Assembly (NCBI GenBank): GCA_009377865.1
Contig: WHTH01000002.1
Span: forward strand, 62,001-126,000
Source: Pseudonocardiaceae bacterium
GTDB taxonomy: Bacteria; Actinomycetota; Actinomycetes; Mycobacteriales; Pseudonocardiaceae
Length of the DNA stretch: 64,000 nt
Direction of reading: 5' to 3'
The translations under genes were made by a program, and so were the position numbers. Below are positions 15,864-17,104 of this stretch, piece after piece. Positions within the stretch are counted from its first letter, which is position 1, and each line of letters begins with the position of its first letter. The notes beneath the pieces are model-generated. The model worked only from the letters and a program-made list of their open reading frames with translations, was not told where the DNA came from and made no database searches.

Positions 15864-16871
15864 TCAACGCGATCGGATACGCGCTCCGGGTGGCCCCGAT
15901 GTGAGTTCCTGCCGGTAGGCCTCGATGACGGAGGCCGGCACGCGGCCGCGGTCGGAGATCGTCCAGCCGTTGCGCCGGGCCCACTCCCGGATCTGCGCCG
16001 GGGTGGGCTCGGCAGGCGGGACGTGCCGGGCCGGCGGCAACGTTGCTTCGAGCCCCTCGGTCTCGGCACGGCTGCGGTACTCCGCGCTCGCGGCGGCAAG
16101 GAAGCGGTAGGTCCATTCCTCGGCCAGCGGACGGGTCTCGCAGAACGCGATGGGCACCGACGGCCAGCGCACCTGCACCTCAGCCAGCGCGTCGGCCACC
16201 GCCGAAGGACGTACGTGCTCGAGCGCCAGTAGCTTCGAGTAGCGCTCCTCGACCACGACGGCGGCGCGCGGCAGCGCCGCCAGCTCGGCCAGCGCGAAGC
16301 CGAGCTTTCCGGTGGTCAGCGAAGTCGCCAGATCTTCGAGACCCTTGCGCTCGACCGCGGCGACGAGGGTCCCGTCGACCTCGACGCCGTAGTCCCCGGC
16401 GGGCAGCGCCCGGCGGGACAGGTCGACGTGGCCGCGGCCGGCCTTGGCGGCGAAGCGGTACGGGTAATGCTCGTGCGAGTCGATGACCAGCGCCAGCGTC
16501 TCGTCGCCGGCGCGTCCGGTGGCCTGCCTGGTGCGGGGCCGGGCCTTGCGTGTGGTGCGGGCCGACTGCCAGAAGATCGCCTCACGGCCGGTGCGCAGCA
16601 CTGTGAACACGAACTGCGAGCGATTCTCCCGCGCCCGGTCGAGCACCAGATCGACGGCCGGGCCGCGGCGGGTGCAGGAGCGCACCGGCACCCGCTCCAC
16701 GATCTCCGGGTCGTCCGGCCAGCCGTCGGCGCGGTGGCAGTACACCTTCGAGGTGCGTGGCCAGGTCTCCCGCGCCTTGAGCACGACCCCGCCACCCAGC
16801 GGCAGCCGAACCAGGTAAGGCAGCTTGGAGTCCGGCTCGGGGTTGTGCGCGATGACGAACTCTCCCGCCAT
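15864..16871 (-). CDS. ERCC4-type nuclease domain fused to an Lsr2-like DNA-binding domain
   Basis: The 335-residue protein has an N-terminal region of unknown type. At about residues 125-235 is an ERCC4/XPF-type nuclease core: LALVIDSHEHYPYRF, an Arg/Gly stretch and the active-site pattern AAVERKGLEDLATSL, in which ERKxxxD is diagnostic. The C-terminus (about residues 290-325) reads AQIREWARRNGWTISDRGR, the Lsr2 DNA-binding module with its RGR AT-hook. Lsr2 binds AT-rich, often foreign, DNA. The fusion could therefore cut or repair DNA at AT-rich places; that combined role is inferred. It stands alone as a transcription unit. Confidence 0.8.
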   Translation of the reverse strand: MAGEFVIAHNPEPDSKLPYLVRLPLGGGVVLKARETWPRTSKVYCHRADGWPDDPEIVERVPVRSCTRRGPAVDLVLDRARENRSQFVFTVLRTGREAIFWQSARTTRKARPRTRQATGRAGDETLALVIDSHEHYPYRFAAKAGRGHVDLSRRALPAGDYGVEVDGTLVAAVERKGLEDLATSLTTGKLGFALAELAALPRAAVVVEERYSKLLALEHVRPSAVADALAEVQVRWPSVPIAFCETRPLAEEWTYRFLAAASAEYRSRAETEGLEATLPPARHVPPAEPTPAQIREWARRNGWTISDRGRVPASVIEAYRQELTSGPPGARIRSR

Positions 16872-17104
16872 GCCCGTGATGGTGCCCGACCGTTTCGACG
16901 ACCCGCCGCCCGGGCCCTATTGGGACTGGTGCTTCGCCCATACTGCGGAGCCTGCGAAACCCTCGGCGCTTCCCGGGAGCTGGGGGAGGAAGACGGCTGC
17001 ATCACTGACGACGCCGATAGCCTCCGGATCTGGATTGGCGACGACGCCTACGAGCTGGAGCCCGACACCTGATCGACGTCCCATCGTGACGTCCGACCCG
17101 TCTG

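What the first reader, a model, noticed from the sequence alone, without database searches (positions are those of the whole stretch)
15864..16871. ERCC4 nuclease joined to an Lsr2-type AT-rich DNA binder
The chain combines an ERKxxxD nuclease core with a C-terminal Lsr2 module including RGR. Lsr2 silences foreign AT-rich DNA in actinobacteria. A fusion could be a nuclease aimed at AT-rich or structured DNA such as mobile elements, or a repair enzyme. I know of similar actinobacterial proteins but not of an established function.
Basis: partly seen in the sequence, partly recalled or inferred. Interest (0 to 1): 0.5.

Follow-up and report, generated by a model that had tools for sequence, protein, structure and literature searches.

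The report
Three-part DNA-cutting enzyme of actinobacteria
This gene encodes a probable DNA-cutting enzyme in which an XPF-type nuclease is joined to a repair-enzyme-like front domain and a tail borrowed from the nucleoid protein Lsr2; it is probably an accessory DNA-repair nuclease that moves between actinobacteria, and we found no study of it.

Summary
Window 15864-16871, minus strand, encodes 335 residues with an ERCC4 nuclease domain (Pfam E 2.6e-12) and a C-terminal Lsr2 DNA-binding module (E 1.4e-13). Nuclease motif residues are invariant in 87 of 87 relatives.

Its predicted fold matches the 3'-phosphoesterase domain of the NHEJ ligase LigD (Z 10.3 and 10.8), without detectable sequence relation and without that enzyme's conserved histidines.

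This domain plus ERCC4 is the constant core. Lsr2 is an optional tail: in an even sample of the phylum, of 37 complete members 13 carry it, 19 have no tail and 5 a different one. So aiming at AT-rich DNA cannot be the core function.

The gene is patchy (about 10% of genomes), usually solitary and sometimes on plasmids. It co-occurs with Ku (35 of 39 against 173 of 357; borderline once stratified by family) and in one genus abuts a complete NHEJ cluster.

Best reading: an accessory nuclease trimming DNA ends or flaps in break repair (0.4). Defence or mobile-element roles stay open. New variant of a known kind.

The parts
15864..16871 (-). Whole coding sequence, 335 aa, ATG start, TGA stop
   Evidence: start supported by relatives aligning from residue 1-4
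16548..16859 (-). N-terminal all-beta domain (residues 5-108), LigD 3'-phosphoesterase-like fold, probably not a phosphoesterase; conserved N10, L17, P24, W37-P38, W51-P52, G70, R79, R84-S85-Q86, F100-W101-Q102
   Evidence: models; VIA-align 3p4h Z 10.3, 3p43 Z 10.8; conservation
16080..16496 (-). ERCC4 (XPF/Hef-type) nuclease domain, residues 126-264
   Evidence: Pfam PF02732; 1j24 Foldseek E 1.6e-7, 2bgw_B Z 14.9 and 1j24 Z 14.4
16332..16397 (-). GDY...VERKxxxD catalytic motif, residues 159-180
   Evidence: named residues identical in 87 of 87
15909..16010 (-). Lsr2 DNA-binding module, residues 288-321
   Evidence: Pfam PF23359 E 1.4e-13; 2kng
15942..15950 (-). RGR loop (residues 308-310), the minor-groove hook of Lsr2-type modules
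   Evidence: sequence; column counts; role of the Q/RGR motif from passages of PMC7074111

Best explanation
It is an XPF/Hef-type endonuclease of a family widespread but patchy in Actinomycetota, made of a constant core (a LigD-phosphoesterase-like beta domain followed by an ERCC4 nuclease domain) and an optional C-terminal DNA-binding tail, here an Lsr2 module. Most likely the nuclease domain cuts branched or flapped DNA next to a double-strand/single-strand junction with a metal held by the D/E/ERK...D residues (inferred from the family). The N-terminal domain, which keeps the LigD-phosphoesterase fold but not its conserved histidines, is probably a docking or DNA-end-binding domain (inferred). 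The Lsr2 tail adds general or AT-preferring duplex binding, in the place where XPF relatives carry a helix-hairpin-helix pair (inferred). The cell probably uses it as an accessory nuclease that trims ends, gaps or flaps in double-strand break repair, in company with Ku-dependent end joining. Shown here: domains, conservation, fold matches, modular tails, patchy and horizontal spread, statistical and local links to Ku/LigD genes. Not shown: any activity, substrate or partner.
For: Nuclease motif residues invariant in 87 of 87; nuclease fold Z 14.4-14.9 to Hef/XPF. N-terminal domain: two separate models both pick the LigD 3'-phosphoesterase family, Z 10.3/10.2/8.4/8.4/6.9 with the next unrelated row at 4.6, and Z 10.8/8.7/8.6/8.2 including an archaeal NHEJ phosphoesterase. 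The N-terminal domain was found only in genomes that also match the core model (39 of 396, all among the 40). Ku is in 35 of 39 core-bearing genomes against 173 of 357 others (Fisher p 3.2e-7); stratified by family the odds ratio is 5.8 with z 1.95. In 78 further genomes of one order: 9 of 10 with a complete gene, 5 of 5 with a broken copy, 36 of 63 others (complete only p 0.078, all 15 p 0.0078; with genome size held, permutation p 0.061 and 0.0015). In L029 and L199 (two species of one genus, cores 77% identical) the gene stands head to head with ligase, Ku and LigD primase-polymerase; in L200, another order, Ku and LigD-like reading frames lie about 4 kb away.
Against: Only 3 of 134 distinct loci (two lineages) have Ku in the flanks; no neighbour is shared by more than 7 of 134 loci. 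The family-stratified Ku signal is borderline (z 1.95). LigD's own phosphoesterase domain shows no association within Ku-bearing genomes (26 of 35 against 133 of 173, p 0.83). Four of 39 core-bearing genomes, and 1 of 10 in the second sample, lack a detected Ku, so the protein does not need it. Foldseek itself gave no N-terminal match at E <= 0.001, and profile comparison found no sequence link to LigD_N. Decaying copies near no NHEJ gene were also seen. Nothing here shows activity.
Confidence: 0.4

Rival explanations
1. A defence nuclease: the Lsr2 module (or another tail) brings the nuclease to invading AT-rich or foreign DNA, which it cuts; the patchy, mobile distribution is that of a defence gene.
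For: Patchy presence (40 of 396 genomes), scattered placement of orders in the gene tree (26 family changes for 20 families in 62 rows), no fixed partner, broken copies in several genomes, Lsr2 tails with an RGR loop.
Against: The tail is absent in 19 and different in 5 of 37 complete members; the only PADLOC match is to the Lsr2-like tail of a methyltransferase model, E 3.2e-4, none to the nuclease or N-terminal domain. No system for telling self from non-self is visible; a lone nuclease aimed at AT-rich DNA would also meet the host's own. The gene also sits on plasmids. Whether loci lie in defence islands was not measured.
Confidence: 0.25
2. A nuclease serving mobile DNA: it helps plasmids, transposons or integrating elements to resolve or process junctions, and chromosomal copies are remnants of such elements.
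For: 23 plasmid records carry it, 22 nearly full-length; in 5 of the 6 plasmid neighbourhoods opened, a transposase, transposition helper or recombinase gene lies within about 1 kb.
Against: No control for how common such genes are on those plasmids was run; 17 of 23 records were not opened. No phage record matched and no IMG/VR contig with the query protein. No transposase or integrase family stood out beside the 134 loci, which are mostly chromosomal or unassigned contigs (largest shared neighbour 7 of 134).
Confidence: 0.2
3. An accessory flap or branch nuclease of replication-fork or crosslink repair, like archaeal Hef, unrelated to end joining; the Ku signal is a by-product of lifestyle or genome type.
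For: Closest solved relative of the nuclease domain is Hef; NCBIfam best hit is Hef nuclease at E 1.9e-6, far below its cut-off; the Ku association is weak after stratification.
Against: No helicase part and no recurrent helicase neighbour; the LigD-like fold and the NHEJ-cluster neighbourhood are left unexplained.
Confidence: 0.15

Closest known systems
Archaeal Hef and XPF nucleases (ERCC4 superfamily; 1j22/1j24, 2bgw)
   Same: Nuclease fold (Z 14.4-14.9), GDY...ERKxxxD residues
   Different: No helicase and no helix-hairpin-helix match; a beta domain in front and an Lsr2 module behind
LigD 3'-phosphoesterase domain (PF13298; 3p4h, 3p43, 3n9b, 5dmp)
   Same: Predicted fold of the N-terminal domain over 93-102 residues
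   Different: No profile match; no invariant or nearly invariant histidine, where PMC8656161 gives His42, His48, Asp50 as metal ligands and Arg52, His84, Tyr88 around the phosphate (passages)
Lsr2 nucleoid protein (2kng, 6qkp)
   Same: DNA-binding module with RGR loop
   Different: No Lsr2 oligomerisation domain found by Pfam; a nuclease takes its place
Unstudied 'ERCC4 domain-containing protein' / 'histone-like nucleoid-structuring protein Lsr2' records of mycobacterial, rhodococcal, pseudonocardial and Streptomyces plasmids
   Same: Same family, 50-54% identity over about 95% of the query
   Different: Only automatic names; no function given in the rows seen

Membership tests
ERCC4/XPF nuclease superfamily | ERCC4 domain with GDY...ERKxxxD active site | tested here: met
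   Pfam E 2.6e-12; residues identical in 87 of 87; fold Z 14.9
ERCC4/XPF nuclease superfamily | C-terminal helix-hairpin-helix DNA-binding pair (usual, not universal; recalled) | tested here: not met
   Pfam at E <= 1 gives only ERCC4 and Lsr2_DNA-bd
ERCC4/XPF nuclease superfamily | Works as a dimer; metal-dependent cutting of branched DNA | not testable with these tools
   needs purified protein
Hef (NCBIfam NF010337) | Helicase plus nuclease, score over 610 bits | tested here: not met
   26.3 bits over residues 109-245 only
LigD 3'-phosphoesterase | Phosphoesterase beta fold | tested here: met
   Z 10.3, Z 10.8, both on predicted models
LigD 3'-phosphoesterase | Sequence membership in PF13298 | tested here: not met
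   no Pfam hit at E <= 1; hhalign of the two alignments, probability 0.15%
LigD 3'-phosphoesterase | Conserved His/His/Asp metal triad and second histidine | tested here: not met
   no invariant or nearly invariant His in the domain; H9 in 3 of 87, H46 in 73 of 87; LigD relatives keep H7, H13, D15, H49. Residue-by-residue structural matching was by eye only
Lsr2 | C-terminal DNA-binding domain with RGR loop | tested here: met
   Pfam PF23359 E 1.4e-13
Lsr2 | N-terminal oligomerisation domain | tested here: not met
   not among Pfam hits
Known anti-phage defence systems (PADLOC-DB) | Match of nuclease or whole protein to a system protein | tested here: inconclusive
   only the Lsr2-like tail of a type II methyltransferase model, E 3.2e-4
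Bacterial NHEJ machinery | Genetic linkage and co-occurrence with Ku/LigD | tested here: inconclusive
   co-occurrence borderline after stratification; adjacency in one genus and proximity in one further genome, 3 of 134 loci

The most novel reading that the evidence does not exclude
Actinobacteria have an unrecognised end-processing nuclease of non-homologous end joining: the LigD phosphoesterase fold, stripped of its own active site, became a DNA-end or Ku/LigD docking platform for an XPF-type nuclease, and in one large branch an Lsr2 module was added so that the enzyme works on DNA coated or organised by the xenogeneic silencer. It would be the bacterial counterpart of the separate trimming nucleases of eukaryotic end joining.
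Probability: 0.25. Interest if true: 0.8.

Novelty: new variant of a known kind. Interest (0 to 1): 0.5.

Why it matters
A review whose passages we read describes LigD as supplying polymerase, phosphoesterase, nuclease and ligase activity in prokaryotic end joining, where eukaryotes use many separate nucleases (PMC8656161). A mobile XPF-type nuclease built on a LigD-phosphoesterase-like fold would be a separate nuclease for bacteria that take part in this, and would explain how some actinobacteria treat flaps and blocked ends. If instead it is a defence or plasmid nuclease, it shows Lsr2 modules being used as plug-in DNA-binding tails of enzymes. Either way, two proteins' worth of automatic names ('Lsr2', 'ERCC4 domain') mislead: the tail is the least constant part.

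Tried and rejected
AT-rich targeting as the core function: rejected because the Lsr2 tail is missing from 19 and replaced in 5 of 37 complete members of the phylum sample. The shape of the replacement tail (L138-L142) as a winged helix is my reading by eye; Pfam gave only one sub-threshold hint (MCM4_WHD E 0.14 in 1 of 3 scanned).

Replacement of LigD's phosphoesterase domain: among 31 near relatives, 6 of 8 core-bearing genomes lack LigD_N against 1 of 23 others, but this is not general: 27 of 39 core-bearing genomes have LigD_N in the phylum sample, 26 of 35 against 133 of 173 among Ku-bearing ones, p 0.83, family-stratified odds ratio 0.70, z -0.7. I dropped the idea.

Conserved partner gene: none; largest shared neighbour in 6+ loci of 80 was one family in 7 and 7 of 134 later. 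A small plus-strand reading frame upstream of the window gene was sought in all held loci and found only in the window's own copies.

Viral origin: no phage record, no IMG/VR relative of the protein; with the core alignment 25 viral contigs matched, 24 of them from query residue 104 on, that is ERCC4 without the N-terminal domain. Structure search of viral models gave ERCC4 proteins of large eukaryotic viruses only at nuclease level. Foldseek of the N-terminal model gave no match at E <= 0.001; sequence profile against PDB gave only chance-level hits, best E 0.38.

Rows dropped: L010 and L011 (partial) from the family alignment and L061 (early stop) from column counts; L047 and L271 from the tree (core too short); G174 (weak ERCC4-only match) from the co-occurrence count, G399 (39-residue fragment) kept. 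Five duplicate cores merged. In one search I took wrong reading frames as Ku; one search replaces it. One search ended with an error after the build; one search shows the tree. The named loci were found with a query that holds the Lsr2 tail, so tail frequencies are quoted from the phylum sample only. Genomes beyond Actinomycetota were not searched in their own right; L082, labelled Acidobacteria, falls among Ornithinimicrobium copies and is probably misbinned.

Literature: searches (Lsr2 + ERCC4: 0 papers), 17, 18, 47, 48, 97, 98, 102, 105, 110 of the open PMC library found no study of this fusion; subscription journals and preprints are not held. Seen: search listings; passages of PMC8656161, PMC7074111 and PMC8125055; no whole paper.

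Full report
What is there. The reading frame lies on the minus strand, 335 residues. Pfam finds ERCC4 at 130-257 and the Lsr2 DNA-binding domain at 288-321, both well over their cut-offs. The neighbours in the window are ordinary and unrelated: a sugar-type ABC ATPase, a YjbR protein, a weakly GAF-like protein, and on the other side amino-acid-type ABC permeases and a solute-binding protein. The window's genome (about 4.0 Mb, 121 contigs) holds this one copy and a separate short Lsr2.

Conservation. From loci found in public genomes and near relatives I aligned 88 family members, 87 after leaving out one cut by an early stop. D131, E134, G159-D160-Y161, V173-E174-R175-K176 and D180 are identical in 87 of 87: the full ERCC4 active-site pattern. 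The N-terminal region is as conserved as the nuclease (N10, L17, P24, W37, P38, W51, P52, G70, R79, R84, S85, Q86, V88, T90, G95, F100, W101, Q102, P112, R120 in 87 of 87 where present). The Lsr2 module is conserved where present (R295, W297, A298 in 81 of 81), with an RGR or KGK-like loop; 6 of these 87 members end before it.

A third domain. The AlphaFold2 model of the whole protein (68 sequences) has mean pLDDT 91.3; a separate model of residues 5-122 has 85.4. The nuclease domain matches Hef and XPF nucleases (Foldseek E 1.6e-7; Z 14.9 and 14.4). The N-terminal domain is all-beta. Foldseek gave no significant match, but realignment of its candidates put four members of the LigD 3'-phosphoesterase family and a solution structure of the same domain on top: 3p4h Z 10.3 (rmsd 2.7, 93 aligned), 3p43 10.2, 3n9d and 3n9b 8.4, 2lj6 6.9, then a gap to 4.6. 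The whole-protein model gave the same family: 3p43 Z 10.8 (rmsd 2.8, 102 aligned), 3n9b 8.7, 3n9d 8.6 and 5dmp, an archaeal NHEJ phosphoesterase, 8.2. The tool warns that Z under 8 may mean only a common arrangement; these stand above that and above the unrelated rows. There is no sequence link (hhalign probability 0.15%), and the domain has no invariant or nearly invariant histidine, whereas LigD needs two histidines and an aspartate for its metal and a further histidine at the phosphate (passages of PMC8656161; our 24 LigD relatives keep them). So: same fold, probably not the same chemistry.

Constant core, changeable tail. In an even sample of the phylum, 40 of 396 genomes match the N-terminal-plus-nuclease model and 39 match the N-terminal domain alone, every one of them among those 40: the domain was not seen without the nuclease, apart from one 39-residue fragment. 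Of the 40, three are broken or weak (G171, G399, G174). Of the other 37, 13 carry the Lsr2 module (including the window), 19 have no tail worth the name and 5, a distinct deep branch from small genomes, carry another tail of about 80 residues that looks like a winged helix by eye. On a tree of 133 cores the tail changes 7 times (2 is the least possible; starred branches force 3 for Lsr2); the Lsr2-bearing rows lie mostly in one large part of the tree and tail-less rows both outside and within it. The root is not inferred, but one main gain and several losses is the simplest reading. Hence the Lsr2 tail is an option, not the essence.

Spread. In 60 near relatives counted with the window's own genome, 10 hold more than the Lsr2 part. 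The gene tree mixes orders and classes: Acidimicrobiales and Solirubrobacterales copies stand inside the Actinomycetes part, genomes of the window's own order are scattered over several branches, and the window copy groups (support 83-86, not starred) with Nitriliruptorales, Geodermatophilales and Jiangellales copies. 23 plasmid records carry the gene; in 5 of the 6 opened, a transposase, transposition helper or recombinase gene lies within about 1 kb (no control run). Broken or partial copies were seen in G004, G171, G399, G467, G468, G501, G502 and G503, some possibly assembly faults. No phage record holds it. All this marks an accessory gene that comes and goes.

Link to end joining. Ku was found in 208 of the same 396 genomes: 35 of 39 with the core against 173 of 357 without (p 3.2e-7). 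Much of this is phylogeny; stratified by family the odds ratio is 5.8 but z only 1.95. In 78 further genomes of one order Ku is in 9 of 10 with a complete gene, 5 of 5 with a broken one and 36 of 63 others; complete genes only, p 0.078 two-sided; all 15, p 0.0078; with genome size held, 0.061 and 0.0015. LigD_N shows no such link within Ku-bearing genomes. In the neighbourhood of 134 distinct copies (1.70 Mb of flank) Ku occurs 3 times, where I would expect about 0.4 at one Ku per 4 Mb (my arithmetic). Two of the three are species of one genus in which the gene stands head to head with a ligase, Ku and LigD primase-polymerase genes, a complete split-LigD set (L029, L199); the third, L200, has Ku and LigD-like frames about 4 kb away, in a genome with no LigD_N. 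The window's own genome has two Ku genes, one beside a ligase-like frame, and no LigD_N. This is suggestive, not proof; most copies stand alone.

Mechanism. I take it as an XPF-type nuclease that trims flaps, gaps or blocked ends, positioned by the phosphoesterase-like domain (on DNA ends or on a partner) and helped by an optional duplex-binding tail. The nuclease step rests on invariant motif residues and fold; everything on substrate, partner and pathway is inference. Rivals are a defence nuclease, a nuclease serving mobile DNA, and a fork- or crosslink-repair nuclease; the present data do not exclude them.

Novelty. The family is visible in public annotation under two different automatic names, but ten literature searches of an open-access library found no study of it. 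As a domain combination it is a new variant of the ERCC4 nucleases; the LigD-like fold of its front domain seems not to have been described, as far as those searches go.

Noticed in passing
window about 16870-17072, + strand: A small plus-strand protein (begins MPVMVPDRFDDPP..., ends ...IWIGDDAYELEPDT) appears split between two frames, head to head with the nuclease gene; it was not found in other held loci.
   Followed up: partly
L138-L142: Deep branch of the family in 1.5-2.0 Mb genomes (local GC 41-59%) with the same N-terminal domain and nuclease but a different C-terminal tail of about 80 residues.
   Followed up: partly
P0001 residues 287-322 against PADLOC MTase_II 531-568: A type II methyltransferase model ends in an Lsr2-like module (E 3.2e-4): Lsr2 modules may be plug-in tails of other DNA enzymes too.
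   Followed up: no
L105 (Rhodococcus plasmid pDK3): The family gene lies 0.4 kb from a TnsA-like/Mu-type transposase/ATPase/TniQ transposition set.
   Followed up: no
G000 contigs C25 and C16 (L201, L203): The window's genome has two Ku genes and no LigD phosphoesterase domain; a ligase-like frame lies near the C25 Ku.
   Followed up: partly
L147-L171: 25 IMG/VR contigs encode ERCC4 nucleases of 25-37% identity, 24 of them matched only from the end of the N-terminal domain on.
   Followed up: no
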